DNA from: Psychrobacter sp. APC 3426
Lineage (GTDB): Bacteria; Pseudomonadota; Gammaproteobacteria; Pseudomonadales; Moraxellaceae
Direction of reading: 5' to 3'
Assembly: GCF_030408035.1 (NCBI RefSeq)
Contig: NZ_JASDCF010000002.1
Span: 1-64,000, forward strand
DNA: 64,000 bases
The stretch's first letter is position 1. Every line of letters starts with the position of its first letter. The notes under the pieces are model-generated. The model was not told the origin of the DNA. It saw nothing but the letters and a program-made list of their open reading frames with translations, and ran no database searches. The translations under genes were made by a program, and so were the position numbers. Below are positions 2,117-44,231 of the stretch, in pieces.

Positions 2117-3517
2117 TTACAGGTTTTTAAAAGAACCAAAATCATAACTATCAAACTTACTATCATCATCAAAAATAGGTGAGTTTAAATAGCTTTGAGT
2201 GACTGTTGTAATATGATTCACTTGTTCGATATCGGTAGTCATGAATCCTACAGGTAGAGTGACATCGTATTGATCAGGGAGTTGAACATGATAACAAACA
2301 ACAGCAAGTGTATCTTCTAATACTATAACTTCGGTATTGCCCTCCAGAAAACCTTCAGAAAACCCGTAAAGGTTATCTTGAGGCACTTCTTTGAACTGAT
2401 GCTTTAAATCACGAACTTCATTGCGTAGGCTTCTACTTTCTTCAGGTAACGGTAAATAAGTTTTAAAGTTATACAATCTAACCTTTTCTTTATTGCGTTT
2501 CACCATAGCACCGTTGGAAATTGAGTTAATTACTTCAATTAGCTTCGTTTGCTTGCCCCAGTAAAAGTCGCTCGGCGCAATCCAAGTCAAGTTTTTAGTT
2601 GTTTTTAGATTATTAGCTAGCTCAGTAACTTTATCAATTATTTTATTTTGATGATATGTTTGTCCGACGAAATATGTTTCGTGATTACTATTTAATTCTA
2701 AGTCTAAAAACTTATTAAAATCAAACTTACCGCCTACAATAATTTTTAAAGTCTCTGGATCTTTTAAAGACTCCATACTTTGCACGATGTCATATAAGTT
2801 GTTTTGCTCCGATCTGTGGTTGCTCAGCGTTTCAGTAATCATTTGTTGAATGTTATCGGACCTAGTAAGATCAAGTTCGCTACGTTCTAATTGAGTGCCG
2901 TCTTCAGCATTAATTTCGAAAGGTTGGGTAAATCTAAAAAAGTCAGTATAAAGCTGTTCAATTAAATCTATCTTGTACAGCTCAATGTCCTCCGAAATAT
3001 TTTCGATTACCTTATCTTCCTTTAGGTTCATAAAGTCTGCTTGAAACTGGCGTTTAGCGACATCCTTACTCTCTGACAAGTCTTTGTTTGGTACATTTAA
3101 CTCCAGCGCGTTACGATTATCTTTAGAAGTCCTTTTTTTTGGTATAAAGTTTCTATCTAATAACTCTAAATGCAAACGTTGGGTTCTTTCTTGCAAACTA
3201 GGTATTTTTGGGCCTTTACTGTTTTGATCAAATAAGAGTTGACCCTTGCTTGACAGTCCGATAGTACCATCCTCATTCCATCTAACCCATCCTTTATCAG
3301 TCAAGTCTTGTATGGCGATTTCAGCTTCTCTTTGAGTAAAGTCAAAATAATCAGCTAGATGCTTAGGTTTACACGAATTTAACTTTAGTAAACGTAGGAC
3401 AAACTCTCTGACAAAAGGAATTCCCCGCTCATCCATATAGGAAAATATGATTTTAAAGCTAGGTGATTTGATGGCAAAATCAATTTGATTAAACACTATG
3501 CTCTCAGAATTATTCAT
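2117..3517 (-). CDS. Winged-helix protein, partner of the NERD-kinase-helicase (MkoB-like position)
   Basis: This 466-residue protein begins with what looks like a winged-helix DNA-binding domain (about residues 30-100; KPKHLADYFDFTQREAEIAI followed by DLTDKGWVRW). A charged linker and a C-terminal domain of about 200 residues that I cannot assign follow. Its start overlaps the stop codon of the upstream helicase gene by one base (TAATG), so the two are probably translationally coupled. In type I Mokosh defence, a kinase-helicase (MkoA) is encoded next to a phospholipase-D-fold protein (MkoB), and this gene has the MkoB position. However, I find no HxK(x)4D motif in its translation, so either the nuclease fold has diverged or this is a different partner. 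It is the last gene before a strong terminator. Confidence 0.55.
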   Translation of the reverse strand: MNNSESIVFNQIDFAIKSPSFKIIFSYMDERGIPFVREFVLRLLKLNSCKPKHLADYFDFTQREAEIAIQDLTDKGWVRWNEDGTIGLSSKGQLLFDQNSKGPKIPSLQERTQRLHLELLDRNFIPKKRTSKDNRNALELNVPNKDLSESKDVAKRQFQADFMNLKEDKVIENISEDIELYKIDLIEQLYTDFFRFTQPFEINAEDGTQLERSELDLTRSDNIQQMITETLSNHRSEQNNLYDIVQSMESLKDPETLKIIVGGKFDFNKFLDLELNSNHETYFVGQTYHQNKIIDKVTELANNLKTTKNLTWIAPSDFYWGKQTKLIEVINSISNGAMVKRNKEKVRLYNFKTYLPLPEESRSLRNEVRDLKHQFKEVPQDNLYGFSEGFLEGNTEVIVLEDTLAVVCYHVQLPDQYDVTLPVGFMTTDIEQVNHITTVTQSYLNSPIFDDDSKFDSYDFGSFKNL

Positions 3518-6500
3518 TATTTGCGTCCTCGCTTATTTGAGGATAATTTTATAAGGCTGTACTTTGAAGCGTCATCATACTCTTTGATATAGCTAAGAAC
3601 TTTTGCTAACGGTGTATGTTTATTTTTTGGACTTTCCCAAGTTTTCGTTGCTCCAACAATCACGAGCTTATCCATAGCTCGTGATAGCGATACATTAGTA
3701 CGGTTAGGCAAATGTAAGAATCCCGTTGTCAGTTGTTTATCAAAACGTGTAAGAGATACAATAATGATTCTATTTTCTTTACCTTGATAACTGTCTACCG
3801 TATCGATCTTTATCAGCTGTCTAAAGCTGTCATCCCAAGTATTTTCATTGAATTTTTTACGTAATAGTCGTTTTTGTTCCGCATACATACAGATCACTCC
3901 TATTAAGTGATCGCCTTCTTTCAAACACTTTTTGGCCGTCTCACTATTTAAAAGTTCATCATTGTTTTGGATGTCTTGCAGTAATTTGATGATGATATCA
4001 ACCTCAACCCGATTAGATGAACTCCCATTAGATGCACCTGTATGATACGCATTAGGCATAGAGGATGTATCAAGCCAACTGACACAGGACTCGATCTCTT
4101 TGGGTACGCTGTTATATATATCAGGAATATCTTCTTCTTGTTTACCGTTTTCAAGCAAACCGTCGTAAAAACAGTATGAAACAAGATTACCAATAGCAGG
4201 TGCCATACGGTATTGAGTTTTCAGTGTAGCGCAAGTATTTTTTCCATATTCAGACTGGAATACACGCTCAAAGTCACTACCTAAAGCATCATCTAACTCT
4301 TCACCTCGCTTAGGAATACCTAGTCGTCGTGCTAAAGCTAACTTGTGTTCTTGTGAATAGATGGGAGGTAGTTGTTTATGATCACCAACCAATAGTACTC
4401 TCTTCCCAGACTGCATGGCGATGGCTAACTCACTAGAGATTGATCTTGCTGCTTCGTCAATGATAACCCAATCATAGACATTTTCGTTAATACCGATATG
4501 TGACTGTCCCATACCAACACAGGTCCCGACTACTAACTGACGCGATCTAGCAAGGAACTCTGCATAGTTAGTACGCTCATTTGATAATGAATCAAGCATA
4601 TCTTCAGTAAGTTGAATTAACTCACTAGCTTCTGAGCTTTCCTTTGGTTCAACGGAGTATTCTTTATTGATTTCAGAAACTAACTTGGTATAAATATCTT
4701 CAATACTTGACTGCTTAATGTTGAAATCTATATTAAAATTGGTTTGAGCCATCTTAGATTCGATATCTTGCTCAATAGCTTTAAGAAGATCTTTTTCCTC
4801 TTTATTATCTATATCCTTTTTCTTATTGTCTTTATCACTCATCAATAAATTATAACGCTTAATCTGTTGACCTATATCAAAGTGTATTTGAGCCCTTTTG
4901 CGCAAGTAGTCTTTTTCTAGTCCCAATAATAAACCAAGATTTTGAATGCGTTCAATTTTTTCAGCTTTAAGTAACTCGTACTTTGAATTTTGCAAGTTCT
5001 CAGAGAATACATCCTGCAATTCACTTGAAACAGTTCTACTACGGTTACTAAAACGTACAACATCCAGTTCTGTAGTAAGCCGACGACAGTGGCGACGTAT
5101 ACGTTCAGCTGCTGTATTAACTGCTTGATGAGACTGGCTTACTAGCAAAATGCTCTGAGTATTTTGTTTTTCAAATAAATAATGTACGAATGCTGCTATA
5201 AACTCAGTTTTACCCGTCCCAGGAGGTCCCTGTAGGAGAGATACAGGTCCATTTTTTAATAGTTTTTCAAACGCCTCTTTTTGGGGATCATTTAATCTTA
5301 TCGTCTGCCCATATTCATTAGTGCGATCATATCGTTTGAAGTCATCTTCACCAATAGTAGAGTCGTAATGAGTAGCGGGTAGTTTACAAGTTGCATCAAA
5401 ATATTCATAAAGGTTATTGATTACGGCCTCGCCATCTAAAATTCTAGATAGCGCATTTTTACGACGGTTAAAAGAAACCTTACTCCGTTTACTTTGTATA
5501 TAGACTATTGTGTCTTCAACTATAGAGTTATTACGCTTGACACTACCTGGCTTAAAATGAAGCTCGTTTAAAGAGCTCCTTTTAACATCTATATTTCCAT
5601 ATACAAAGGTCTTATCATTAGCAGTATCTTTGCCTAAAGCTTGTACAATATCGTCTTTATTGAATTGGTCTAAAGGGCTTACTTCTCCATTGTAGGGTAC
5701 ATAAACCTTATCCTCATTCTGCCAAATAACTGAGTCAGTGGCGGTAATATATGGAAGCGCCTCGGTTTCGGTGTTTAAAATTGCTTGCCATAACTCTTTA
5801 ACTGTAAAGAAGTATGAACTTTCCTTCTTTGAAGGCTCTTCAGTAAACTCAATTATTTCAGAAGTAAAATCAAGCTCAGATTCAGGTTCTACATTTTGAT
5901 TAGTAGTGTCATCCGTTCTTTGTAACTCTTTAATAAAGTCGTCAACTGCATTAGTAAAATGAGCGTCCTTTAATAGTACTTTGTTTAAATCAGCTAAATC
6001 ATGACGATGCTTGCTAGTTAGCCGAACTCCTACAGAAATAATTGATTGGCTATCTCTTCTGTCTTTAGCTGATATATGGTCTCGGCTAATAGGCGGTAGG
6101 ACATGCGTAAACTTTTTTTCTGTTATTGAGTAAAAAGCTTTAAACAAACCACCTAAACCTATAAATTTAACTAGTATATCGTTCTTTTCTTTACTTTTAC
6201 TTTTTTCAAACTGAAAAAATAGCTCATCGTTTTCTGGATATATTTCAAGCGTGTCAAAAGAATCTCTATTGCCAATACCTACCTCAATCATTTGAACTTC
6301 AGATTTTGGTTGAAGAGCGTCTTTAAAACGTTCAAGAGAAATAAAACCTGATTTGAGGTCTAACAACTCAGTAGATACCACTTCAGCAATATCAGGAAAT
6401 TCAGTAGAGTCTTCACCCCAAGCAACTCCTAATAGCTCACAACTCATTTTCATAACTGCAAAAATATCACGCATTTGAGTCGTAGCGTTTTCAGCGTGGC

Positions 6501-8565
6501 TAGGAGCGTATTCATAATTTAAGTTGCTACTACCATTTGAGTTAAAGTCTAAAGCATCAAATAGATACAACTGATAATCGATATCATCAGAATCAGCAGC
6601 AATTGGACTTATTTTTATATTTTCAGGATGCAAATCACCATGCGTAACACCAATTCCATGAAGATGCTCAATAGCATGAATAAGTTGATTAATGACTCCA
6701 AGTTTATGCTCAAGAGTTAACTTATCATCTAAGCTTTTTAACTCTGACCACATAAAACCGTCTTCTACGAAGTCACTAACCATATACAAACTACCAGACT
6801 TAGTAGCAATTCCAAACTCGTGAATATTAGGTATGTATTTTGGTGAAAGCTGTTTTAAGTTAGAAATTCTCTGTAGCCAATCGAATAAAATACGAGCTTT
6901 ATAATCTTCATTAACTGGAAAGGTATTCAACCACGCCTTAACTATTCGACCATTAGATAAGTAAACTTCCTTTTCGTTAGTTTCAACGATGAAGTCTTCA
7001 TCCTCTCTAAACTGACGATAATGACTAATATTATGATAAAAAGGTTCTAGTTGATCCTTATCAAATGAGAAGTCTTTTTTATCTGTGGGCCTAGCTTCAT
7101 TGAACGCTTCTAGAAAATCCTTTGCATTTTTGTAAGAATCTTCAGATAAAGCTTTTCTAATAATAAGGGAGTACCACTCATTATCAGCTTCTAACTCATG
7201 TTTAAATGACCCAATACTATCATTAGATAAGCGCTTCGATTGTAGAATATGCCAGGATAATACAGCTAAAGCTCGTACATCTAATTGGTAAGCAGTGGGT
7301 CTATTTATAGGATAGGCATCTTGGACTAAGTCAGTGTCAGTGGATACGGTGAGTATGTCTCTAATATCTCCAACAGTTCCTTTCTTAGGAAAAAAAGCAG
7401 TAGCGAAACCAGATAGCGAGACTTTTTTGTCAGCAGATAGCCAGACACTGTGTTTTCCTAAATCCCTATGAGCAATATCAGCATTGTGCAAATCGACAAA
7501 TTTATGCAAGAGTAATTTGACATAGTCAATGCGGTCTTTAATTAGAATTTGTTTGGCTATTTGACCTATAAATTGATTAAATCTAAGTTGAGAAGGCATC
7601 AAATCAAATAAGTCGGTATGATCTACGGTCATCTCTGATTTTTGGGGGACTGTTTTATAATTCAAACAGGCAGAGTAAAGCTCTTCATTAATACCCTTTA
7701 AATGTTGTAAAACCTCATACTCTCGACTGACTAACTTAAACCTACCGTCAGGTGTTTGCGCCTCTGGGTTTTGTATCTTTGAAAAATCCCAACGACGTAA
7801 TAACGCTTTATCATCTTTAGAATGATCTGAATGGGCAAAATACTCACTATATACTTCATTGGGATGTTTGAATACGGCCTCATCTTCTGCAACATAGCCA
7901 TTTACGCGAATACTCTTAGGTTTTACATTGCTTCCACCAAAAATATCATCAAATACTGCAAAATCTTTATTTAAAACCTTAGCATCTGGGTGCGGTCTAA
8001 AACGGTCATTAAATTTTTTCTCATCTTTGAGTTGTAGGAACTCTTTCAGACTTAGAGTGTGTATTTTCTCATTGTCCTCTAATTTACTGTAATCTGCATT
8101 GCCTGTCATTACGACCAAAAAATGTATAATTGGGGTGCGGACTTTATTAGTGAATTTGTTTTTGTACCTCTTTAATATACGGTCCATTAAATACTGTTTA
8201 TCACGTGTAATAGAAACTGGAGATCTGCCCATATCTTTACTGCCGAGATACCAGCGATTATTTTTACTCGTAACTTTATATTTATTCCAGTCTTTTAGCT
8301 CTATTATTAGCACATTGCAATGAGTGATGATTACTAAATCAAATTCACCTTCTTTATTGCCTTTAGGATCAGCTAATCTAAATCCGGAATAACCCTTCCA
8401 TGGAAACATAGGATTGCTAGGTGCGCTTTTTTGAAATTGAGCCCAACTCATATTTCTATTATCAAGCTCAGCTAGTACATCTGATACTTGAAAGCTTGCT
8501 TTAATTTTTCCAATAGCTTCAACTTCATGCTGTGTAAGCCCGCCACCCCAATCCTGTACTTCCAT
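3517..8565 (-). CDS. NERD nuclease - tandem kinase - SF1 helicase fusion (Mokosh MkoA-like)
   Basis: This 1682-residue multidomain protein has three parts. Residues about 15-140 form a NERD nuclease domain with the restriction-like residues D76, E89 and K91 (EFDLVII...IIELKDW). Residues about 270-500 form a first kinase-like domain with HRD at 366-368, but Ser373 replaces the catalytic Asn and the DFG motif reads SGF, so it is probably a pseudokinase. Residues about 530-755 form a second kinase with Lys543, HGD at 642-644 and Asn649. Residues about 1085-1650 form a UPF1-like (COG1112) SF1 helicase: GPPGTGKT (1113-1120), DEAA (1370-1373), GDHKQLPP (1394-1401), QYRM (1451-1454) and a coiled-coil insertion at about 1190-1340. 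A good Shine-Dalgarno (AAGGA) precedes the ATG. The kinase-helicase fusion with a small downstream partner matches type I Mokosh defence; PglW of BREX also combines NERD and kinase domains. Confidence 0.85.
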   Translation of the reverse strand: MEVQDWGGGLTQHEVEAIGKIKASFQVSDVLAELDNRNMSWAQFQKSAPSNPMFPWKGYSGFRLADPKGNKEGEFDLVIITHCNVLIIELKDWNKYKVTSKNNRWYLGSKDMGRSPVSITRDKQYLMDRILKRYKNKFTNKVRTPIIHFLVVMTGNADYSKLEDNEKIHTLSLKEFLQLKDEKKFNDRFRPHPDAKVLNKDFAVFDDIFGGSNVKPKSIRVNGYVAEDEAVFKHPNEVYSEYFAHSDHSKDDKALLRRWDFSKIQNPEAQTPDGRFKLVSREYEVLQHLKGINEELYSACLNYKTVPQKSEMTVDHTDLFDLMPSQLRFNQFIGQIAKQILIKDRIDYVKLLLHKFVDLHNADIAHRDLGKHSVWLSADKKVSLSGFATAFFPKKGTVGDIRDILTVSTDTDLVQDAYPINRPTAYQLDVRALAVLSWHILQSKRLSNDSIGSFKHELEADNEWYSLIIRKALSEDSYKNAKDFLEAFNEARPTDKKDFSFDKDQLEPFYHNISHYRQFREDEDFIVETNEKEVYLSNGRIVKAWLNTFPVNEDYKARILFDWLQRISNLKQLSPKYIPNIHEFGIATKSGSLYMVSDFVEDGFMWSELKSLDDKLTLEHKLGVINQLIHAIEHLHGIGVTHGDLHPENIKISPIAADSDDIDYQLYLFDALDFNSNGSSNLNYEYAPSHAENATTQMRDIFAVMKMSCELLGVAWGEDSTEFPDIAEVVSTELLDLKSGFISLERFKDALQPKSEVQMIEVGIGNRDSFDTLEIYPENDELFFQFEKSKSKEKNDILVKFIGLGGLFKAFYSITEKKFTHVLPPISRDHISAKDRRDSQSIISVGVRLTSKHRHDLADLNKVLLKDAHFTNAVDDFIKELQRTDDTTNQNVEPESELDFTSEIIEFTEEPSKKESSYFFTVKELWQAILNTETEALPYITATDSVIWQNEDKVYVPYNGEVSPLDQFNKDDIVQALGKDTANDKTFVYGNIDVKRSSLNELHFKPGSVKRNNSIVEDTIVYIQSKRSKVSFNRRKNALSRILDGEAVINNLYEYFDATCKLPATHYDSTIGEDDFKRYDRTNEYGQTIRLNDPQKEAFEKLLKNGPVSLLQGPPGTGKTEFIAAFVHYLFEKQNTQSILLVSQSHQAVNTAAERIRRHCRRLTTELDVVRFSNRSRTVSSELQDVFSENLQNSKYELLKAEKIERIQNLGLLLGLEKDYLRKRAQIHFDIGQQIKRYNLLMSDKDNKKKDIDNKEEKDLLKAIEQDIESKMAQTNFNIDFNIKQSSIEDIYTKLVSEINKEYSVEPKESSEASELIQLTEDMLDSLSNERTNYAEFLARSRQLVVGTCVGMGQSHIGINENVYDWVIIDEAARSISSELAIAMQSGKRVLLVGDHKQLPPIYSQEHKLALARRLGIPKRGEELDDALGSDFERVFQSEYGKNTCATLKTQYRMAPAIGNLVSYCFYDGLLENGKQEEDIPDIYNSVPKEIESCVSWLDTSSMPNAYHTGASNGSSSNRVEVDIIIKLLQDIQNNDELLNSETAKKCLKEGDHLIGVICMYAEQKRLLRKKFNENTWDDSFRQLIKIDTVDSYQGKENRIIIVSLTRFDKQLTTGFLHLPNRTNVSLSRAMDKLVIVGATKTWESPKNKHTPLAKVLSYIKEYDDASKYSLIKLSSNKRGRK

Positions 8566-8618
8566 TATTTATCCTTAAATTTTTCTTTATATACATTTAA
8601 TACTTGATAGTTTGTATC

Positions 8619-10601
8619 TTAGCTAGCCAAATAATAACGCAAGTTAAATAGTAGATTAAGTGAATCGCCATCCTGTAATGCGCCAATACTATCTATGTTT
8701 AATTCAGGGTGGTTGCAATCGTACTGACTAATATTTTTTAAATTATTATTAATGAAGTCTAACTGAACTTGGTTCATTGCAGACAAATATTTTGCGATAG
8801 GGCTTAATTTGACTAACTCAAGGCTTTGCGCTTTCTTGAGGTAATCATGCGACTCTCTCTTCAAACCTTTAAAATGATAAAATAAACTTAATTCACGACA
8901 TCTCAACATATCTATATATTGCATGGAGAAGCTATTTACTGAAATACTGTTTACTATATCGTCAACTCTAGTTATCAACTCCTTAATATCCGACTTTTCA
9001 GAGATAAGCAATTTTTGATTTAATACAAATAGAGAAAAGAAGTAGTCAAACTCTTGAGCATCCTCATTTTCATTAATATAGTCAATAGCGATATTAACAG
9101 CATCATCTAATCGACACTCTTTACTTAGTATTAGTAGTCTCAGGCAGAAAATACGGCTCTTATCAGATTTATGGCTTAGATAGGGTAATATCTCTTCAAT
9201 ATAGCTTTTGATTACTTCTGTTTTATCAGCGCTATAATTTAGTGTCATACAGCGTATCAGGGTGCTTTTAGCACGAATTGCCATACTAGAACGTAAAAAG
9301 TCTGACTTCTCCATATCAGGTGAAATTAACTCCCAGATATTGCGATACTCATCTATCATATTCCAATGAGCACGGGCTAACTCTTCAGACTTTTCAAAGT
9401 CTAAAGAGTTAACGTATATCTCTACTTCTCTAGAGTGAAAATCTAATATCATTGAAAAATTGCTTGGATCTGATATAAGCTCATTGATTATAGATTTTTG
9501 TCTCTGTACCACTTCTTTAGCCTTATCAACGTCACCGATATGGTTCAAGCACAGTAAAGCTAAATTATTCAATTTAAATTTAAAAGAATTAAAGTTGCGA
9601 ATACCTAATTCTGTATTAGCATCTTCAAGTATATGTAGTAGCTCAATTAAAATATTTAATTTTTGAAAATAACTTTTATAGACTGTCTTGTCACGCCATA
9701 TTCTCTCTAAAAGTCCTTCAAAGTATATTTTTGCTCCAGAAGAACCTGTCTGTGTGAATACCACTTTGATGAGTCGGTACAAAGCAGATTTATAATCTTT
9801 ATTTTTAGGATGTTTATCTACTAATTTTAAGCTATCGAATAATGCATTAATATAATTCTGATTACGCTCATGATTCAAGATTCTTCTTAGTTCAGGTGAG
9901 GAAAAGGTTTCAAAAGAAAATAATTGCCCATTATCTTTCAAATCGTTCAAAATTTTATAGTTTTCGGAAAACCTTTGGTTATAAGTTATATTACATATAA
10001 AGTCCGCACAAATGAGACCCCATTGATATTTAGCATCTCTCATATGCACTTCTATATTGTTCAATAAGGCAATTTGTCCTGAAGCTACTAAGTCTGACTC
10101 TACTGCTTTAGGTAATGCCTGCAATATTTCTTGATCAATATTAAATTGAGTGGTTTGGCGGACTGCATTAATCGTTCTTGTCGCTACAACTAAGTCTAAA
10201 TGAGTTATTTCAGAATTGAAAAATTCGTGGACGGCAGTTTCAGCCTGAATAATCAAATCTAAAAGCATCAAGCGGTAGGTACGCTCAAGGTTATGTGCGC
10301 TGACTTTAGCTTTATTAATAGTGGTAACGAAGCAAGACGGCGTATTAGCAGAATTTAAAGTTTTAAATAAATCTGTGGCAATATTTAAAGCTTTATCATT
10401 ACCTGAGTTTCTACGTATTTCAGTAAGATGAAAGTCATCTTGACCATTCAGCTCATATTTTTTGATAAGAGGGTATATCGCAGTACGTAACTTATCTTCT
10501 GAATTCTTAAATGAATCAGCAATAATTAGCCCACCAATCAGCCAAGATTGATTAGGGCTTTCAAAATCACCCGATTCATCGATATAGAGGGTATATTTCA
10601 T
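8619..10601 (-). CDS. DUF3800 protein with long helical C-terminal half
   Basis: The 660-residue protein opens with MKYTLYIDESGDFESPNQSW, the typical N-terminus of DUF3800 proteins. These are predicted RNase-H-like enzymes, with the early Asp and Glu of YIDESG as candidate metal ligands. DUF3800 proteins are usually about 230-300 residues. Here the domain fills roughly residues 1-250, and a second half of about 400 residues follows, made of amphipathic helices that look like TPR or similar helical repeats. The start codon overlaps the stop of the upstream DUF2357 gene (TAATG), and 53 bp separate it from the NERD-kinase-helicase gene. I infer that it belongs with the McrBC-like pair, perhaps as an extra nuclease or sensor. 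The function is not established. Confidence 0.75.
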   Translation of the reverse strand: MKYTLYIDESGDFESPNQSWLIGGLIIADSFKNSEDKLRTAIYPLIKKYELNGQDDFHLTEIRRNSGNDKALNIATDLFKTLNSANTPSCFVTTINKAKVSAHNLERTYRLMLLDLIIQAETAVHEFFNSEITHLDLVVATRTINAVRQTTQFNIDQEILQALPKAVESDLVASGQIALLNNIEVHMRDAKYQWGLICADFICNITYNQRFSENYKILNDLKDNGQLFSFETFSSPELRRILNHERNQNYINALFDSLKLVDKHPKNKDYKSALYRLIKVVFTQTGSSGAKIYFEGLLERIWRDKTVYKSYFQKLNILIELLHILEDANTELGIRNFNSFKFKLNNLALLCLNHIGDVDKAKEVVQRQKSIINELISDPSNFSMILDFHSREVEIYVNSLDFEKSEELARAHWNMIDEYRNIWELISPDMEKSDFLRSSMAIRAKSTLIRCMTLNYSADKTEVIKSYIEEILPYLSHKSDKSRIFCLRLLILSKECRLDDAVNIAIDYINENEDAQEFDYFFSLFVLNQKLLISEKSDIKELITRVDDIVNSISVNSFSMQYIDMLRCRELSLFYHFKGLKRESHDYLKKAQSLELVKLSPIAKYLSAMNQVQLDFINNNLKNISQYDCNHPELNIDSIGALQDGDSLNLLFNLRYYLAS

Positions 10602-13081
10602 TATCGATCTCTTATACTAGTAAAATAATCACCGCATTCAGGGCATACAATATTATCAATCTTTGTAGGTTCATTAAGACTAAGCATGTGGTAAGTCCAA
10701 TAAAACCCATTCTTATAGAGAGGTTGGTGACATTTTCTACAGTTATTAACTGTCCATTTGAAGCCACATTCTTTTTTATTATTACAAGTATGTAGCACTC
10801 CATTGGTAAATTCGTTTTCTTTGGGATTACCATCATGATCTAACCCGCAAGCAATACAGTAATTATGCCCATGAGTTTGTAAGAACATTCCAAATAGTCT
10901 TTGTAAATTATCGAGGTTGAGAGGGTGCTTAATTACATCAGGGTGTAAGAATATACCTCCGTAACGATGATTAGGAAGTTGATCATTAGTGTCGTTTAAT
11001 AAAAATGCCTCACCATAATATGCTTGTTTAGACCAAATTCTATTTGATAATGGATTTGAAATTAAGTCACTAACGCTAGTAATAATATATACCCAGTTGT
11101 CATTGTCACCTTGTTTATAATCCTTGTTATCTTTCAAATCATTGACTGTTTCCAGTACATTAATAGACGCATAAAACTTAGCATCTAAAACTAAAGTATA
11201 AGTACAGTAGTTATTATCACCATTTTTTCGGTTAAAGTGTAAAACGTAGTCTGGGCGAACTAGACGCTCTCCACCTTTAACAAGTATTTCTTTTTCATAA
11301 AAAAAGTCTATATAAGAACCGTTATTATGCACAAGTGTTATTTTCACGTTTTTAACATCTTTACTATCGTATATTATATCTGCAACTTTATGGCTCCAGT
11401 TGTCATCACTAGGCTTGAATTTAAATTTGTGTATTAAGGTTTTTAAGATGATAATCAATACCCATCTTTCATATATCTTAGGTAGTTCTAAAGATAACAG
11501 AGGGTTACTAAATAATTTATGATATTTAAGAGAGTCAAGTATTTCTTTATTGAAAATTTTGTAATATAAGGACAGTACCTTGGAGTACTGTTTGTTATTA
11601 GAATAAACTAATGACGTTGGCTTGATTGTAGTTGAATTTATTCCATAACTTTTAAGTAAGCTTATAGTGGTATTAAGATCTACAATCAAGCTAGAGTAAG
11701 CAAGAGAAACAGATTCTAGATCTTCTAAATTTTTTTCATTTTTTCTATTCAGATCAGAAATAATTTTTTCATTTTCTTTTTTATATTTACTATCAAATTC
11801 GAAGTCTGCACTAGAATAGTTTGATATAAGTTGACTAAAATTTGAAACCGTATCTAGTTCAATCTTTTTGATAGAGTTTAGCTTTACAATATCATAATTT
11901 GGGAAACGATGAGATTCTATACAATCGCCTATAACTTTGTACTGGCTATATTCTTCTATACTATTATGTATAGATATAGGTAGCCTGTAACTAACAGAAT
12001 CATTGCCATATATTGCGTAGCTAAAATCTCCCTTCCATTTTTTTCTAAAATGAAGAACTTCATCAAAATTACAATTATTCTCACTTATATGAAAACTATC
12101 AACTAATTTGTCTAGATTATCTTGATGTTTTTGCTTATTTAAATTGATAGAATTAATTTGGTTCTGAATGATCTGTCCATAGTCTGATTTATTTTCATCT
12201 ATATATTTACCAAAATCTATATATAGCTGTGATTCCAAACTTGATAAAGTTGGATCTATAATATTGTTTATCATACTTAATAGTAATAATCTTACTTCGA
12301 TAGCCATATACAGCAAAAATCCATTCACTGAATTAATCACTGACTCTGAATAATGTGTGCTTTCATAGTATTTTTTATATGGATTTGCGACATACTGCTT
12401 CAGAAAATCTACATCTGGCTTGATTCGTTCTGAACTTTCTAACTTTTTGGACTTAACTAATGACTTATGAAGTTTAACTGCTACACTATTCAAAGATTTG
12501 ATAAACTCTCTGGCTAACTTTAAATCAATAAGTTGCAGATATTCTATATCTGTATCTTCTACACTACCAGTGCTAGTTATTCCTTTTTTATTATAAATTA
12601 GCTTATAAAACTCTCCTCTAAATGCATCCATTATTAACTTCATTCCACCTTCATCTAAGACCTTATCATGAATATTAATCAAAATAGTAGTTTGGCCTAC
12701 TAATGAAGGTATAATTAGATAACTCTTTCCAATATGGTTTCTAAGATTGGATTTCATAAAAGATTTAGATTTCCCTAGAAAACTATTTTTTTCTACCCAC
12801 CATTCTTTGGAGTTACTATCTTTTATAGCTACTAGCTCAAAAATATCTTTCTTTTCATTCATTAAATAAGGAGGGATATTTAAGTTTGTATCTTCAAAAT
12901 ATATTGCAAATTGACCGCTACTTTTCATGGGATATGTGATTAATTCAATTTCATAGTCGATACTAGAATCACTAAAGTTAGGTTCAATATCAATATTCCA
13001 TGGTGATTCAATAATACTTTTGACTTCTCCTGTTTCAGGAAAGCGTTTTACGCTAATATATTTTGCTGTCAATCCTCTCAT
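10601..13081 (-). CDS. McrC-like DUF2357 / PD-(D/E)XK nuclease with zinc-ribbon tail
   Basis: This protein of about 826 residues has the layout of McrC-like DUF2357 proteins: a long N-terminal region, a coiled-coil middle, and a restriction-like nuclease core where RPDYV is followed by LVLDAKF (roughly residues 610-630). The C-terminal 90 residues contain paired cysteines (CIAC, CNNKKEC, CRKC, CPEC) that should bind zinc. McrC family members are the nuclease partners of McrB-type GTPases. The frame is open back to a TTG at 13099, but ATG at 13081 gives a normal start 8 bp beyond the upstream McrB-like stop codon, and I prefer it. It lies directly between the McrB-like gene and the DUF3800 gene, which implies one functional unit. 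The gene is very AT-rich. Confidence 0.8.
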   Translation of the reverse strand: MRGLTAKYISVKRFPETGEVKSIIESPWNIDIEPNFSDSSIDYEIELITYPMKSSGQFAIYFEDTNLNIPPYLMNEKKDIFELVAIKDSNSKEWWVEKNSFLGKSKSFMKSNLRNHIGKSYLIIPSLVGQTTILINIHDKVLDEGGMKLIMDAFRGEFYKLIYNKKGITSTGSVEDTDIEYLQLIDLKLAREFIKSLNSVAVKLHKSLVKSKKLESSERIKPDVDFLKQYVANPYKKYYESTHYSESVINSVNGFLLYMAIEVRLLLLSMINNIIDPTLSSLESQLYIDFGKYIDENKSDYGQIIQNQINSINLNKQKHQDNLDKLVDSFHISENNCNFDEVLHFRKKWKGDFSYAIYGNDSVSYRLPISIHNSIEEYSQYKVIGDCIESHRFPNYDIVKLNSIKKIELDTVSNFSQLISNYSSADFEFDSKYKKENEKIISDLNRKNEKNLEDLESVSLAYSSLIVDLNTTISLLKSYGINSTTIKPTSLVYSNNKQYSKVLSLYYKIFNKEILDSLKYHKLFSNPLLSLELPKIYERWVLIIILKTLIHKFKFKPSDDNWSHKVADIIYDSKDVKNVKITLVHNNGSYIDFFYEKEILVKGGERLVRPDYVLHFNRKNGDNNYCTYTLVLDAKFYASINVLETVNDLKDNKDYKQGDNDNWVYIITSVSDLISNPLSNRIWSKQAYYGEAFLLNDTNDQLPNHRYGGIFLHPDVIKHPLNLDNLQRLFGMFLQTHGHNYCIACGLDHDGNPKENEFTNGVLHTCNNKKECGFKWTVNNCRKCHQPLYKNGFYWTYHMLSLNEPTKIDNIVCPECGDYFTSIRDR

Positions 13082-13089
13082 TATAGATT

Positions 13090-15132
13090 TTAACCCCAAT
13101 AGCTAATACTATGATTCAAAGCACCATTAAGGTTTGATTGAAGATTTTCAATCTCACTATATGAATTATAATGCTCTAATCCTAGGTCGCTTAAAAGCAT
13201 AAAAAGGTCAACCAGTTTATCAAGTTGATCTCTTGTTACAGTCATTCTAGGCAGTATTTTATGCAGGATAAAACCATTAGTAGCGATGATTTTAGCTTGG
13301 CTATCATTATCTTCTAACACCTTTATTTGATTTAAATAGTTTAAAGCTTGTCTAATAGCTCTCATTCCGATAGCTATATCAAATTCACTATTAAAAAATT
13401 TTGCTAGTTCAGTTATTTCTATACAGAAATCATCGTCCAAATCCATCTCAGGATAATTCAGTCGATTTCCTAGTCTATCAAAAGAGATATTAACTACCTT
13501 ATTTAACCCTTCTGAAAAAGGAAACTCAGTTCTATAATTTTCTATTTGTAGTTTTAAACTTTTAATATCCATATAGAGTGGGTTATCAAATTTCATAACT
13601 TGCACTCTATCAAGAACTTTAGATGAAAAATTGTAAGTAGTTTCGTCAATGTTCGCTGTACCAAAGAAATGGACGTTGTCACCTATAGTAATGTTGGGAC
13701 GTATAGATGGAACCAACTGCTGATAGAGCTTATGATAGTCTTCAGAAGAAGAGCTTTTATAACCATATTCATTATCTATGTATGCAACCAAATTTTTATA
13801 TTTAGTAATGTTTTTAGGGGTAATAGATTGAGGAGAGATACCATTCAAAATATCTCCCAATTTCCCCAGATCGGGATAGAGACTTTCTGAATATAATTGT
13901 ATTTCAATCAGATGATCTCTATCTTCAAGTTTTGATAGGAAATCAGCAAAATAATACTCAACTCTAGCAAGGTTCATCTCATCCAAGCATATAAAATAAG
14001 ACTTTTCAGGGTTGTCTTCAGCTTCAAATAAGGCATCTAGGAACTCTGTTGAAATATACTGCTTTTGAATAGGATTATAGTAGCCTAATAAGTCCTCTTT
14101 ACTCATCCAATTAGGCTTAACTGGTATAATATAAGCTTGAGCATTAACAGCTCTTGCAAACTCCTTAACTATTTTCGTTTTACCTACTCCTGATTGACCA
14201 GCAAGTATAATAAAATCGTGTGTCCTAACTAGTGCAAAGAAATCTAGTATAGTATTTCTTTCATAATACATTCCTCTAGCTAGAATGTACCCATGAATAT
14301 AATCTATTAACTTACTGTAACTATCAAAGTCGTTAAAGGCTAATAAGCTTCCTTGATGTATGTGATTATCAGTATTATTTGATAAGTCATCTTTTATCAA
14401 TCTATATTTTTTAAATATTTCTGTATTTTCTTTATGTATTTTTAATTCGTTACTATGTTTCTTTTTCAAATTCTTAAATAAATCCTCAGACTCTCTTAAC
14501 TCTTTTATTTTATTAGTCAAAGCTTTTTCTAACTTGATATTTTCACTGACTAAATTTTCTTTATTACTTTTTTCTAATAGAATTATCTCATCCAACTCTT
14601 TTAATTGCTTGCGTTTCAATTCCTCTTCTTCAATTAGCTCATATAAAAATTCAATTGACTGCGGAATATTATAATCTTTTTTTATTTTATTGGTTATATA
14701 TAGATATGCGCTTTCGGTAAGGAAGATTTTTTCAGGATCACTTGGATCTTTAATTAAATCATTTTCGGATATTGTTTTTAGATTCTCTTTTGATAAAGGC
14801 TCAAATTTTAATAAATCTATAATATTCTTACTTTTGAAACTATTTCTTATTAAGAAACCTCTTATTATTGTCTTATTATCTGAAAGGGTCTGATAGTAAT
14901 TCAAAATCTCTGGAACTTTTGATTTCGTTATAAATACATTTTCAATGATCTTATTATTTAATTTTAATGGTTCTCCACTACCACAATATTTTATATTTTT
15001 AAGCAAAACTTCACCGTTGGTCATTACTCTTAACTGACCAACGACTTCAATAGGTATAGAGTTATTTTCGAAAAAATCTTTAATAAATTCATCCATATTT
15101 GAGTTTATCTCTTGTTCTATTACAGTCTGCAT
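13090..15132 (-). CDS. McrB-like AAA+ NTPase with N-terminal coiled coil
   Basis: The 680-residue protein has an unassigned N-terminal domain (1-160), a charged coiled coil (about 165-250), and a McrB-type AAA+ module. The Walker A motif is GQSGVGKT (312-319), Walker B lies in ICLDEMNLAR (381-390), and GTANIDETT (491-499) is followed by an arginine-finger region (VLDRV, R509). In classical McrB the corresponding motif is MNxxDRS; here it reads ANIDETT, which is typical of the group paired with DUF2357 nucleases. The product probably forms an NTP-driven ring that activates the McrC-like partner encoded just downstream. It starts 72 bp after hsdM on the same strand. A coiled coil in a McrB homologue recalls the CoCoNuT class of type IV systems, but I cannot confirm membership. 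Confidence 0.8.
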   Translation of the reverse strand: MQTVIEQEINSNMDEFIKDFFENNSIPIEVVGQLRVMTNGEVLLKNIKYCGSGEPLKLNNKIIENVFITKSKVPEILNYYQTLSDNKTIIRGFLIRNSFKSKNIIDLLKFEPLSKENLKTISENDLIKDPSDPEKIFLTESAYLYITNKIKKDYNIPQSIEFLYELIEEEELKRKQLKELDEIILLEKSNKENLVSENIKLEKALTNKIKELRESEDLFKNLKKKHSNELKIHKENTEIFKKYRLIKDDLSNNTDNHIHQGSLLAFNDFDSYSKLIDYIHGYILARGMYYERNTILDFFALVRTHDFIILAGQSGVGKTKIVKEFARAVNAQAYIIPVKPNWMSKEDLLGYYNPIQKQYISTEFLDALFEAEDNPEKSYFICLDEMNLARVEYYFADFLSKLEDRDHLIEIQLYSESLYPDLGKLGDILNGISPQSITPKNITKYKNLVAYIDNEYGYKSSSSEDYHKLYQQLVPSIRPNITIGDNVHFFGTANIDETTYNFSSKVLDRVQVMKFDNPLYMDIKSLKLQIENYRTEFPFSEGLNKVVNISFDRLGNRLNYPEMDLDDDFCIEITELAKFFNSEFDIAIGMRAIRQALNYLNQIKVLEDNDSQAKIIATNGFILHKILPRMTVTRDQLDKLVDLFMLLSDLGLEHYNSYSEIENLQSNLNGALNHSISYWG

Positions 15133-15204
15133 AAAAATTAACCTTTAAAACATGAACCATCAAATAATTTTAGGCGAATATATATTTAATAAATTGACTA
15201 AAAA

Positions 15205-16731
15205 TTAACCCTCAAGCTCATCCAAAACCGCACGGAAGCTTGCCAGCCCAGCTTCGATATTATCGATAATGTCACTCGCTAAATCTTCAGGGTCTGGCAG
15301 ATTGTCTAAATCAGTTAGTGAGTCGTCTTTTAACCATGAAATATCTAGGCTGGTTTTATCACGCTTTTTAATGTCCTCGATACTATATTTGCGCCAGCGG
15401 CCGGTAGGGTTGGTTTCAGGGTCATAGGTTTCGACACGCTCATGGATATTATCAGCGTTATAACAAGCTATGAAATCTTGCAAATGCTCAAGCGTCATCG
15501 GTTTGCGCTTAAGAGTGTGATGGACATTGGTACGGTAATCGTATATCCACACATCTTTGGTAACGGCATCTTCTTGAGCAGAATGATTATCAAAGAATAA
15601 GACGTTTGCCTTAACACCATTGGCATAAAAGATACCTGTTGGTAGACGCAAAATCGTATGTAAATTGGTCACCTCGAGTAGTTTTTTACGCACAATCTCG
15701 CCAGCGCCACCTTCAAATAGTACGTTGTCTGGCAAAACCACACCTGCTTTGCCATTAATCTTGAGCATGGTGTAAATATGCTGGAGGAAGTTAACCTGTT
15801 TATTAGAGGTAGTCGCCCAGAAATCTTGACGGTTATAGACAAAGTCTTCTTTTTCTTGCTCGCCTTCATCATTGGTGACGGTGATGCTGCTTTTTTTACC
15901 AAAAGGTGGGTTGGCAAGTACCATATCGACACTTTTACCTGCTGACCCAATCAAGGCATCATCTGAGCTGATAGGGCTATCACCATCAATCTCACCAATG
16001 CCATGCAAGAATAAATTCATCAAGCACAGTCTGCGAGTATTGGCGACGATTTCATTACCCGAAAATGTATTGTGCTTTAGGCTTTCCTTTTCTTCTTTAT
16101 CAAGCTTATGATGCTGTTCTATATAATCATAAGCCGCAAGCAAAAAGCCACCTGTGCCCGCTGCTGGGTCGGCAATAGTAATATCAGGACTAGGTTCCAT
16201 ACAGGCAACGATAGCTTGAATCAGAGGCCTTGGGGTAAAGTATTGACCTGCGCCAGACTTGGTATCCTCAGCATTTTTTTCCAAGATACCTTCGTAGATA
16301 TCGCCTTTGACATCAGTGCCCAGTCGTACCCATTTGGTGCTGTCTATCATGTCAATGAGGCGACCAAGCTTAGCGGGATCTTGAATCTTATTCAGTGCTT
16401 TGGTAAAGATTTGCCCCAGTAAGCCTTTTTGCTTACCAAGCTCTCTTAGTAGCTGGATATAGTGGATTTCGAGTGCTGCGCCTGACTTACTGGTCAAACT
16501 GTCCCACTCAAAGCCTTTGGGTACGCCAATATCTCGGTTATAAGGCGGCAAGCTGTATTCGTGTGCCATTTTCAAAAAGATAAGATAAGTAATTTGTTCT
16601 AGATAATCGCCATAGCTGACGCCATCATCACGTAGGGTATTACAAAAGCTCCAGACTTTGGAGACTATAGAGCTGGCTTGGTTGCTCTGCTGATTGCTTG
16701 ATAAAATATTTGGGGTAGCTGTGTCACTCAT
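15205..16731 (-). CDS. hsdM: Type I restriction-modification methyltransferase subunit HsdM
   Basis: This is a 508-residue N6-adenine methyltransferase subunit. The N-terminal HsdM helical domain covers about residues 20-150 (SKVWSFCNTLRDDGVSYGDY). The catalytic domain carries the SAM-binding motif DPAAGTGG (188-195) and the catalytic motif NPPF (274-277). Length and motif order are normal for the family. Together with HsdS it methylates the host recognition site, and with HsdR it completes the restriction complex. The gene lies 67 bp downstream of hsdS. The ATG at 16731 starts a normal MSDTATPN N-terminus. The hsd genes look less AT-rich than the McrBC-like and Mokosh-like genes that follow, which suggests separate origins for the modules. 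Confidence 0.93.
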   Translation of the reverse strand: MSDTATPNILSSNQQSNQASSIVSKVWSFCNTLRDDGVSYGDYLEQITYLIFLKMAHEYSLPPYNRDIGVPKGFEWDSLTSKSGAALEIHYIQLLRELGKQKGLLGQIFTKALNKIQDPAKLGRLIDMIDSTKWVRLGTDVKGDIYEGILEKNAEDTKSGAGQYFTPRPLIQAIVACMEPSPDITIADPAAGTGGFLLAAYDYIEQHHKLDKEEKESLKHNTFSGNEIVANTRRLCLMNLFLHGIGEIDGDSPISSDDALIGSAGKSVDMVLANPPFGKKSSITVTNDEGEQEKEDFVYNRQDFWATTSNKQVNFLQHIYTMLKINGKAGVVLPDNVLFEGGAGEIVRKKLLEVTNLHTILRLPTGIFYANGVKANVLFFDNHSAQEDAVTKDVWIYDYRTNVHHTLKRKPMTLEHLQDFIACYNADNIHERVETYDPETNPTGRWRKYSIEDIKKRDKTSLDISWLKDDSLTDLDNLPDPEDLASDIIDNIEAGLASFRAVLDELEG

Positions 16732-16798
16732 GCTTTTCTCTCGTATGGATACTATCTGGTACTGATAAATTATAGATAAATGGCTTTTGTATTAGCAA

Positions 16799-18364
16799 TT
16801 AAAGCGGTAATGTTATCTGCTCATCTTTTTTAGATTTCTTTGGTGTCTTAGCAGATTTGGTTTTCGCTTTGCTTTTTGAGGCAGCTTTATCTTGTTTCGC
16901 CTGTTTTTCAGCAAGTGCTTTGGCTTCGCGCTCGGCTTTGATTTGGGCTAACAACTCGCTGGCTGGCGGATCATTAGGGTCTTGTGGTACAAGCTTACCT
17001 TGAAAGGCTTTATGAAGAATTGAAGTTTTTAGTAGATTAGCTTTAAGGATTTTACTTTCTAAAGTAGATATTATTGAATCTGTTTCACTTAGCTTTTCAT
17101 CCAATGTACTAACAATAATATCCTGTTCTTGTTTTGAACAAAGAACTACAGGCATTTTTTTGATATCACCGCCTGAAATTCCAGATTGACCAGCAGTGGT
17201 TCTAATCCTACGTTCAATAAAGCTTCTACTAACCCCAACATTCAAGCCATATGCCAAAAAGCTATTCTCTACCTCATCTAAATCCACTCTAGCTCTAATC
17301 AATTTATCTGGATAAACATAATCCTCTGTCGATTTAAAAAGAGCACATACACCTACATAACGTCTAGTGCCGTTGTATCTTGTAAAGAGCAGATCTCCTT
17401 GTTGCAATAAAAAGCTTGGAACCTCATGTTCACTTGAAAGGTATCTGTAATCATCAAGATTAAGGCTGAAAGCTCTTACTGCACTAATACGCAATATTTT
17501 TGTGCCCTCATGACCTTCTGGCTTCAAAGATAGGCCATTTCTTATGAGCTCACAAATTCCTTCAAATTCAACAACAACCCATTCATGAGGCAAGTCACTA
17601 CTATCCAAAACCAAAAGCTCTTTAGGTTTAGTAGGCTTTCTAGGTTTTGACCATTCCTTACCTTGTTCTTCCCAATCTTTAACCGCTTGTTCCCAATCCG
17701 CGATTTGCTGATCGTAGTAATTTTGACGAGCGGCTTGAATCTGCTTTAGCAACTCATCAGCACTAGGCAAGGGTTTGCCATGCTTCTCAGCATAATCTTC
17801 TCGCCATTTAGCCGTCAGCTTTCCTTCAAAAGCATGCTTAAGTAATGACTGACGGTATTGTCCAAGTTGCCGTTTGGCAAGCGTTAGATTCTCAATACCA
17901 GCATCGACCTCTGAAAACAGCGTTTCAATTTTATCGACAATTCGGTTTTGTTCGTTTACTGGAGGAATGGGGATATCAATTGCTTTTAATCCCGATTGTG
18001 TTATTTGTGGTTGAGCAGAACCAGATATTACGAATGAAAAGTTAAAGTTCTTCAAATAATAAAATAGATATTTAAAGTTCATTAATTTCGGTATGTTATC
18101 TAAACACATCGCATTACCATTTATATATGCGTATGGTTCTGAAATATGAATTTCACCGCATGTCGCCCCTCGACAAGTTATCATCAATGCTGGATCTTCA
18201 TGATTGTATTCATTAAAGAAACCTATTTTCCCATTAGCACCATATACTGGATAGCCAGTTTCTAATAAGTCCTTTGTAGCTATAGTTTTCCATTGTTTAG
18301 GCTCTGAAATATCAAAAATATTACATATTTCCCAACTTACTGGTAAATCTACTTCATTTATCAT
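16799..18364 (-). CDS. hsdS: Type I restriction-modification specificity subunit HsdS
   Basis: This 521-residue protein has two target-recognition domains, about residues 5-130 and 255-400. Each is followed by a conserved helical spacer: PIPPVNEQNRIVDKIETLFSE with AFEGKLTAKWRED in the middle, and SKQEQDIIVSTLDEKLSE with AFQGKLVPQDPNDPPASELL near the end. Each domain should recognise one half of a bipartite DNA site, and the spacers set the gap. The last 50 residues are Lys/Ala-rich and probably disordered. Its ATG overlaps the hsdR stop codon (ATGA), indicating coupling. The target sequence cannot be derived from the protein by eye. The TRDs are AT-richer than the spacers, as expected for parts that are exchanged between systems. 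Confidence 0.93.
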   Translation of the reverse strand: MINEVDLPVSWEICNIFDISEPKQWKTIATKDLLETGYPVYGANGKIGFFNEYNHEDPALMITCRGATCGEIHISEPYAYINGNAMCLDNIPKLMNFKYLFYYLKNFNFSFVISGSAQPQITQSGLKAIDIPIPPVNEQNRIVDKIETLFSEVDAGIENLTLAKRQLGQYRQSLLKHAFEGKLTAKWREDYAEKHGKPLPSADELLKQIQAARQNYYDQQIADWEQAVKDWEEQGKEWSKPRKPTKPKELLVLDSSDLPHEWVVVEFEGICELIRNGLSLKPEGHEGTKILRISAVRAFSLNLDDYRYLSSEHEVPSFLLQQGDLLFTRYNGTRRYVGVCALFKSTEDYVYPDKLIRARVDLDEVENSFLAYGLNVGVSRSFIERRIRTTAGQSGISGGDIKKMPVVLCSKQEQDIIVSTLDEKLSETDSIISTLESKILKANLLKTSILHKAFQGKLVPQDPNDPPASELLAQIKAEREAKALAEKQAKQDKAASKSKAKTKSAKTPKKSKKDEQITLPL

Positions 18365-21195: not shown

Positions 21196-21264
21196 ATTCA
21201 CGTTCAATCTTAATGTTGAATTTAAATAGACTAATATAGCTGAAAATTGTTGATAAAGCTAAGA

Positions 21265-21293
21265 CCAACAAGTGTTGGAATAAATATTATTCC
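21265..21293. promoter_or_regulatory. Two overlapping inverted repeats in the hsdR/mcrB divergent region
   Basis: CCAACA-AG-TGTTGG (21265-21278) is a perfect 6-bp inverted repeat. It overlaps GGAATA-AATAT-TATTCC (21277-21293), another perfect 6-bp repeat sharing two G residues with the first. Both lie between the divergent hsdR and mcrB start codons, where a dimeric repressor could control both transcription units. No regulator gene is obvious next to them. The operator role is inferred from symmetry and position only. Confidence 0.45.
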
Positions 21294-21407
21294 ACACTAA
21301 GGGTTAGTGGTACTATGCCAAACATTGCTTTGTAAGCAAATATTGTAGCCATTAAACCCGTGAATAGGAAAAAACGTTTAACTATTCGATGAAAATAAGG
21401 TAATAGA

Positions 21408-43929: not shown

Positions 43930-44149
43930 ACAATGATGTGCAAGTCTTTGTAAAAAGTGCTATTGATATCGATTAAATATATTGAATGTGTCAATGAATA
44001 AATGACTTAAGTAGATGTATTGATTATCTATTCTGACTTTGACATAATGCAGCCTATTACCTATATCATATAAGATAAGCGCGATATGATGACAGCGTTT
44101 ATATCAGTATTAGACGATTGAGTGATATACAAAGAACCTCATCGATGAT

Positions 44150-44188
44150 AAGCCTCCGACGTCCGCGTCTGAGGCTTTTGTTTTTTTC
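44150..44188 (+). terminator. Intrinsic terminator between the two permease genes
   Basis: AAGCCTC-CGACG (44150-44160, plus G at 44161) pairs with CGTCTGAGGCTT (44166-44177), followed by TTGTTTTTTT. It closely resembles the gyrA terminator and lies 44 bp upstream of the second permease gene. The 302-bp region 43930-44231 shows no gene. Confidence 0.8.
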
Positions 44189-44231
44189 TAAAATTGCCAA
44201 GGATGTGCGCCAATTTTAAAAGGCTGTTGTT

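What the first reader, a model, noticed from the sequence alone, without database searches (positions are those of the whole stretch)
8619..15132. Three-gene module: McrB-like AAA+, McrC-like DUF2357 nuclease, and long DUF3800 protein
The three genes are packed with an 8-bp gap and a TAATG overlap. The AAA+ protein has a coiled coil and a divergent ANIDETT motif, the nuclease carries a zinc-ribbon tail, and the DUF3800 protein is more than twice the usual size because of a helical half. This combination differs from classical McrBC and might be a type IV-related system with a third catalytic or sensing subunit. It is the best candidate here for a poorly described system.
Basis: partly seen in the sequence, partly recalled or inferred. 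Interest (0 to 1): 0.8.

Follow-up and report, generated by a model that had tools for sequence, protein, structure and literature searches.

The report
McrBC-like defence with third nuclease gene
Three neighbouring genes in a bacterial defence island (a McrB-like motor, a McrC-like protein and a long DUF3800 protein) travel together in distantly related bacteria; they likely form one anti-phage system in which an exchangeable part, predicted to do the recognising, would switch on two predicted nucleases, one of them a partner that I did not find described for this kind of system in the papers searched.

Summary
The module is real; its borders are the three genes at 8619-15132. A scan of the GTDB species collection with the long DUF3800 family gave 15 loci: 2 are distant, 2 start at a contig edge, and in 11 of the other 11 a McrC-like and a McrB-like gene lie directly upstream, same order and strand, in six phyla by record title, mostly metagenome bins. 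The pair also occurs without the third gene: its motor matches 322 plasmid records, none of which matches the long DUF3800. The pair is a known kind: PADLOC's PDC-M26, with the NxD motif and the insert that Bell et al. 2024 give for Type I-A CoCoNuTs, described as two-gene systems. The third protein joins a DUF3800 domain, an RNase H-fold nuclease by published work, to a TPR half. New here: in Psychrobacter the DUF3800 gene stays 81-98% identical while the pair is exchanged (window against L053: 25-36% identity), and the motor's N-terminal OB-like domain is swapped on its own. Best reading: variable recognition, constant effector. Mokosh and Type I RM next door are separate. Function is untested.

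The parts
13090..15132 (-). McrB-like AAA+ motor (CnuB-like), 680 aa
14773..15060 (-). N-terminal OB-like domain (residues 25-120), the exchanged module
   Evidence: five strands with a helix between strands 3 and 4 in the model; identity matrix; L053/L054 swap
14407..14667 (-). long helix (residues 156-242), coiled coil in most of the family
   Evidence: AF2 model; heptad test (window itself not above shuffles)
14176..14199 (-). Walker A GQSGVGKT
13714..13869 (-). helical insert between Walker B and NxD (residues 422-473)
13645..13653 (-). NxD signature, N494-I-D496, followed by E
10601..13081 (-). McrC-like nuclease (CnuC-like), 826 aa
   Evidence: PDC-M26B 203 bits; PDDEXK_7
11114..11479 (-). 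PD-(D/E)xK nuclease domain (residues 535-656) with E538, P610-D611, D633-x-K635
   Evidence: invariant in 18 of 18 aligned proteins
10634..10858 (-). zinc-ribbon tail, C742 to C816
   Evidence: 8 cysteines; seven invariant and C781 in 17 of 18
8619..10601 (-). long DUF3800-TPR protein, 660 aa
   Evidence: ORF; Pfam DUF3800 27.1 bits; AF2 pLDDT 85.7
9897..10601 (-). DUF3800 domain (residues 1-235), predicted RNase H-fold nuclease; D8, E9, H58, E106, D115, D200 invariant
   Evidence: 29 of 29 rows; strand/helix order; fold by published work
8751..9896 (-). TPR solenoid (residues 236-617)
8503..8618 (-). 3' flank shared with the DUF3800 gene in three other Psychrobacter genomes; includes the 5' end of MkoA

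Best explanation
The three genes travel together and likely form one anti-phage module, in which a McrB-like NxD motor would recognise an invader's nucleic acid (probably RNA) through an exchangeable N-terminal OB-like domain and would then switch on two predicted nucleases, the McrC-like subunit and the third-gene DUF3800-TPR protein. Steps: (1) shown: gene order and linkage are conserved; in Psychrobacter the motor and McrC are exchanged together, the OB-like domain is exchanged on its own, and the DUF3800 gene stays much the same. (2) Inferred: the motor forms a McrB-like ring with McrC docked on it; the OB-like domain is the recognition part; the TPR half docks the DUF3800 nuclease on parts of the complex that do not vary. 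(3) Inferred: recognition starts nucleotide hydrolysis, which unleashes the PD-(D/E)xK nuclease and the RNase H-fold nuclease, the latter more likely on RNA, giving restriction or abortive infection. The pair occurs without it elsewhere, so the DUF3800 protein would be an added effector that depends on the pair.
For: Linkage: 11 of 11 readable loci. Dependence one way only: no long DUF3800 in 6 of 6 plasmid loci read (two of them hold the same proteins) nor beside the 2 other hits over 600 bits in 398 genomes of the phylum; 322 plasmid records match the motor, many in part only, 0 the long DUF3800. Catalytic sites kept: McrC E538, P610-D611, D633-x-K635 in 18 of 18; DUF3800 D8, E9, H58, E106, D115, D200 in 29 of 29. 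DUF3800 under purifying selection, dN/dS 0.16-0.21 in three comparisons. Mosaic: DUF3800 93% aa / 94% DNA between window and L053 while AAA is 36% and McrC 29%; elsewhere AAA and DUF3800 identities go together (Spearman 0.78, 54 non-independent pairs). OB swap: L053 and L054 motors share 162 of 170 residues in 301-470 but 43 of 153 in 1-185; L053 and P0127 share 85% in the OB-like domain but 29-59% in the three other parts compared. NxD and insert place the motor with CoCoNuTs, predicted to act on RNA. DUF3800 proteins also accompany some CRISPR V-A2 and VI-F loci.
Against: I saw no test of function in anything I read. The RNase H fold was not shown here: the fold search covered only the TPR half, and no model of the McrC-like protein was made. 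The AU test does not reject one clade for the window, L052 and L053 motors (p 0.104), so the exchange rests on divergence and DNA boundaries, not on topology. In each of the three other Psychrobacter genomes at least one of the three frames is interrupted, so the module may often decay there. The window's own long helix fails a simple heptad test. A tight three-gene complex predicts co-evolution of all three; the mismatch between pair and DUF3800 in Psychrobacter is also what an independent third gene would show. That the target is RNA rests on analogy alone. Most of the 11 loci are metagenome bins.
Confidence: 0.45

Rival explanations
1. The pair is a complete two-gene Type I-A CoCoNuT-like system and the DUF3800-TPR gene is an independent defence gene that merely sits in the slot behind it.
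For: The pair occurs without it; in Psychrobacter the DUF3800 gene parts from the pair at a junction at its own start.
Against: The close DUF3800 family lies directly behind the pair in 11 of 11 readable loci across phyla and has no match at all in the plasmid, phage and IMG/VR collections; outside Psychrobacter its divergence follows the motor's.
Confidence: 0.2
2. The DUF3800-TPR protein is a brake rather than an effector: it would degrade the activating RNA or the products of the pair and reset it, or protect the host from it.
For: The pair occurs without it elsewhere; DUF3800 has been suggested to act in crRNA biogenesis or degradation in CRISPR loci (passage).
Against: A needed antidote should be present in two-gene loci too; it was not found in 6 of 6 plasmid loci read.
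Confidence: 0.15
3. The TPR half is the business end: it would sense a phage peptide or protein, as TPR receptors of the NprR/Rap/AimR kind do, and pass the signal to the pair; catalysis by DUF3800 is secondary.
Against: TPR folds match one another broadly (human APC/C and other TPR chains score the same); catalytic residues of the N-terminal domain are invariant in 29 of 29 rows.
Confidence: 0.1
4. Chance neighbourhood in a defence island.
For: Mokosh, Type I RM and a second McrBC stand next door.
Against: Conserved order in 11 of 11 loci, although a motor hit over 600 bits is found in only 3 of 398 genomes of the phylum.
Confidence: 0.02

Closest known systems
CoCoNuT Type I-A (CnuB + CnuC; Bell et al. 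2024, PMC11090510)
   Same: NxD motif followed by E; long helix before the motor; helical insert between Walker B and NxD; OB-like N-terminus; McrC partner with PD-(D/E)xK and zinc ribbon
   Different: Described as two genes only; DUF3800 has 0 occurrences in the main text (supplements not seen); placement in their tree could not be run
PADLOC PDC-M26 (A and B)
   Same: Motor matched over residues 11-635 of 680, McrC over 10-824 of 832
   Different: The DUF3800 protein has no PADLOC hit up to E 10, within HMMER's filters
TPR-DUF3800 accessory proteins of CRISPR V-A2 and VI-F loci (PMC10910872, PMC12669027; passages)
   Same: DUF3800 of RNase H fold, with TPR in the Cas12a2-linked ones, next to a defence effector
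Classical McrBC (second copy in this window, 21408-24618)
   Same: AAA+ McrB motor with a McrC gene
   Different: NxxD motif (MNTAD) and a Walker B to motif distance of 49 instead of 109

Membership tests
CoCoNuT Type I-A | NxD instead of NxxD GTPase signature | tested here: met
   N494-x-D496 invariant in 41 of 41 rows of A3; definition
CoCoNuT Type I-A | Helical insert between Walker B and NxD, said to set Type I-A apart from all other CoCoNuTs | tested here: met
   Distance 109 in the window and 109-122 in 39 of 41 rows (no regex match in L008; 51 in L012, where the pattern fits an earlier site), against 54-64 in six other NxD relatives and 49 in the classical copy; helices in 422-473
CoCoNuT Type I-A | Coiled coil fused N-terminal to the GTPase domain | tested here: inconclusive
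   87-residue helix in the model; heptad pattern above shuffles in 29 of 41 family rows but not in the window's
CoCoNuT Type I-A | CSD-like OB fold at the N-terminus of CnuB | tested here: inconclusive
   Five strands with a helix after the third; the fold matches covered only residues 261-663
CoCoNuT Type I-A | CnuC with Ig-like N-terminal sandwich | not tested
CoCoNuT Type I-A | CnuC with DUF2357, PD-(D/E)xK and zinc ribbon | tested here: met
   PDDEXK_7 in 14 of 14, DUF2357 in 10 of 14 members but not in the window's own; 8 cysteines
CoCoNuT Type I-A | System of CnuB and CnuC only | tested here: not met
   Third gene conserved in 11 of 11 readable loci; hence filed as a variant, not as a member
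CoCoNuT Type I-A | Place in the CnuB tree | not testable with these tools
   Reference CnuB sequences not held
PADLOC PDC-M26 | PDC-M26A and PDC-M26B adjacent | tested here: met
   411 and 203 bits over most of both proteins
Classical McrBC | NxxD motif | tested here: not met
   NxD
TPR-DUF3800 CRISPR accessory | DUF3800 with RNase H fold plus TPR | tested here: inconclusive
   DUF3800 by Pfam and TPR by fold met; RNase H fold not reached by the fold search
TPR-DUF3800 CRISPR accessory | Next to a Cas12a2 or VI-F effector | tested here: not met
   Neighbours are the McrB/McrC-like pair and MkoA

The most novel reading that the evidence does not exclude
A restriction system built like an antibody: the motor's N-terminal OB domain is a recognition cassette that recombination swaps between alleles, the whole motor-McrC pair is a second swappable layer, and both fire one constant RNase H-fold DUF3800-TPR effector, the same kind of effector that RNA-triggered CRISPR types V-A2 and VI-F recruit.
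Probability: 0.33. Interest if true: 0.8.

Novelty: new variant of a known kind. Interest (0 to 1): 0.62.

Why it matters
CoCoNuTs are predicted from sequence and structure models to act on RNA; what they recognise is open. Natural alleles that share the effector and differ mainly in the OB-like domain make the recognition question directly testable. The third gene also ties Type IV restriction to the DUF3800-TPR nucleases seen beside RNA-triggered CRISPR effectors, suggesting a portable effector shared by unrelated sensors.

Tried and rejected
Chance neighbourhood: rejected. Mokosh (MkoA/MkoB) as part of the module: rejected, no MkoA match in the fetched stretches behind the DUF3800 gene in L052, L053, L054 (L052 has a DdmD-like gene there). 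A known structured RNA at the module: Rfam gave only three tRNAs over gathering score in the whole window; two matches at E 3.7 and 4.6 in 8000-21500 are taken as chance. A CRISPR-like partner at the distant Lachnospiraceae DUF3800 in L014: the 1537-aa neighbour has no Pfam or PADLOC match and two weak NCBIfam ones (SMC, a surface exclusion domain), and no tandem array was found. Long DUF3800 in plasmids, phages or IMG/VR: none. Protein search with the McrC-like query returned one near-identical protein only and so gave no wider family. RNase H fold in the PDB matches: the lists are filled by TPR and other helical-repeat chains, and the second look covers 235-657 only; absence says nothing. 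Topology test of the motor tree: p 0.104, not decisive. Point-by-point positive selection in the OB-like domain: not seen between window and L052 (dN/dS 0.25); the change seen is by exchange. Coiled coil by heptads in the window's own helix: not above shuffles.
Full report
What is there. The genome is Psychrobacter or close to it: the DUF3800 protein's relatives include one named Psychrobacter arenosus (90%), and a genome of the window's own genus (G388) has a contig of the same length as the P. glacincola record behind L002. Reading down the minus strand from 21207: a Type I RM set HsdR-HsdS-HsdM (18361-21207, 16799-18364, 15205-16731), then the McrB-like motor (13090-15132), the McrC-like protein (10601-13081), the DUF3800 protein (8619-10601), and Mokosh MkoA and MkoB (3517-8565, 2117-3517). 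A divergent classical McrB/McrC pair stands at 21408-24618, then two tRNA genes (the McrC label of the second gene is my reading). The gap of 8 bp and the TAATG overlap are exact.

Is the trio more than chance? I scanned the one-genome-per-species collection with an alignment of 29 long DUF3800 proteins: 64 stretches matched a pattern, 16 encoded a relative, 15 distinct loci. Two (L014, L015) are distant (24 and 20 bits) and have no pair. Two (L003, L013) begin at the contig edge, so nothing upstream can be read. In the other 11 (L002, L004-L012, L016) a McrC-like gene lies directly upstream and the motor upstream of that, same strand. With the window's own sequences as queries the motor was found in 11 of 11 and McrC in 10 of 11; the eleventh (L006) appears with a profile built partly from these loci. 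L010, L011 and L016 hold only the first part of the DUF3800 gene at a contig end; in L016 it is about 120 residues (E 1.1e-5). In L002 the motor and McrC frames are interrupted, and in L012 a DDE transposase-like ORF splits McrC. By record title the hosts are Pseudomonadota, Campylobacterota, Deferribacterota, Thermodesulfobacteriota, Armatimonadota and Spirochaetota plus one unnamed bacterium; nine of the 11 are metagenome bins. Six pairs of hits in the two protein searches share exact contig lengths (for example P0006/P0127 and P0010/P0130), which suggests further linked pairs but was not verified.

The reverse direction. In 398 genomes of the phylum, 14 matched the motor alignment at E 0.001; three scored over 600 bits (own, G224, G847), and the two others have the pair with no long DUF3800 in the fetched stretch. 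In a sample of the same make-up the DUF3800 alignment found the window's own copy and one weak match of 18.8 bits. In plasmids the motor matched 322 of 72,556 records; in an even sample down the ranking 23 of 45 rows had 277 bits or more and the rest were weaker or partial. The long DUF3800 matched no plasmid. In 6 of 6 plasmid loci read, the motor is followed by one long gene, annotated as a nuclease in four, as hypothetical in L122 and as EstP in L123, and no DUF3800 is listed; L057 and L059 hold the same proteins. So the long DUF3800 was found only with the pair; the pair also occurs without it. On the motor tree the three-gene rows (13) and two-gene rows (6) need 3 changes of label, fewer than any of 500 shuffles, with 7 of 20 inner branches well supported.

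Exchange in Psychrobacter. The long DUF3800 is in 4 of 105 genomes of the genus: own, L052, L053, L054 (L002 is taken as the same record as L054). L052 is collinear with the window at 92% DNA over 8523-17032, though a gyrA-like core gene (my label) is only 77-79% identical there, so the block probably moved sideways. L053 and L054 match the window at 94% and 91% DNA over the DUF3800 gene and its 3' flank (core gene 87% and 86%), yet their motor and McrC are 36%/29% and 23-39% identical in protein; to each other they are 92-93% identical in DNA from about codon 196 of the motor onward. The junction lies at the start of the DUF3800 gene. Inside the motor the OB-like domain moves on its own: L053 and L054 share 162 of 170 residues in 301-470 but 43 of 153 in 1-185; L053 and P0126-P0128 (near-identical to one another) share 85-86% in the OB-like domain and 29-60% in the three other parts compared; P0124 and P0129 share 93% in the C-terminal part and 31-33% in coiled coil and OB-like domain; the window and P0123 share 56% in the OB-like domain against 85-97% elsewhere. 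Over 13 DUF3800 copies (78 pairs) identity never falls below 81%. Outside the genus, motor and DUF3800 divergence go together (Spearman 0.78 over 54 non-independent pairs). Against this: the AU test does not reject one motor clade for window, L052 and L053 (p 0.104), where branches are long; and at least one frame is interrupted in each of the three other genomes.

How it most likely works. The exchange pattern is that of specificity parts: an N-terminal domain and a motor-nuclease pair that vary, a third protein that varies little. I infer that the OB-like domain recognises the invader, probably RNA since the branch is predicted to act on RNA and since DUF3800 proteins accompany RNA-triggered CRISPR effectors, that the motor with McrC passes the signal on, and that the DUF3800 protein, docked by its TPR half, is an added nuclease effector. 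None of these steps is shown. The main rival, an independent third gene in a convenient slot, explains the exchange in Psychrobacter but not why the close family stood behind the pair in every readable locus.

Verdict. A real, conserved three-gene variant of a known kind, with an unusually clear natural experiment on recognition in one genus.

Noticed in passing
2117-8565: Mokosh type I pair: MkoA (1768 bits) and MkoB (296 bits).
   Followed up: partly
8503-8565; L052, L053, L054: The DNA of about the first 14-20 codons of MkoA remains behind the DUF3800 gene in three genomes without an MkoA match there, as if Mokosh had once stood there or joined exactly at this point.
   Followed up: partly
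21408-24618: Second, classical McrB-like motor (NxxD) with a McrC-like gene, divergent from the Type I RM genes; residues 187-398 of the motor match a PD-T4-1 model.
   Followed up: no
L054 1-3906: Here the classical McrBC and the 5' end of HsdR sit directly beside the three-gene motor; no further Type I RM gene was matched in the fetched 19.5 kb.
   Followed up: partly
L052, L053, L054: The DUF3800 frame ends early (605-635 aa) in all three other Psychrobacter genomes, while P0002-P0010 are 660-662 aa.
   Followed up: no
L087, L088, L089: Three distant NxD McrB-like loci have an MkoA-like helicase-type ORF two genes upstream, on the same strand, which recalls the CnuH-CnuE-CnuB-CnuC order of Type II/III CoCoNuTs.
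   Followed up: no
L086 5001-9682 and 15371-19501: One genome carries two different NxD McrB-like/McrC-like loci about 6 kb apart on opposite strands.
   Followed up: no
42859-45302: Two tandem, similar 356-aa proteins, membrane proteins by my reading, a likely duplication.
   Followed up: no
L056 13330-14589: A 419-aa ORF without Pfam or PADLOC match follows the two-gene pair on a Pseudoalteromonas plasmid; a possible other third-gene variant.
   Followed up: no
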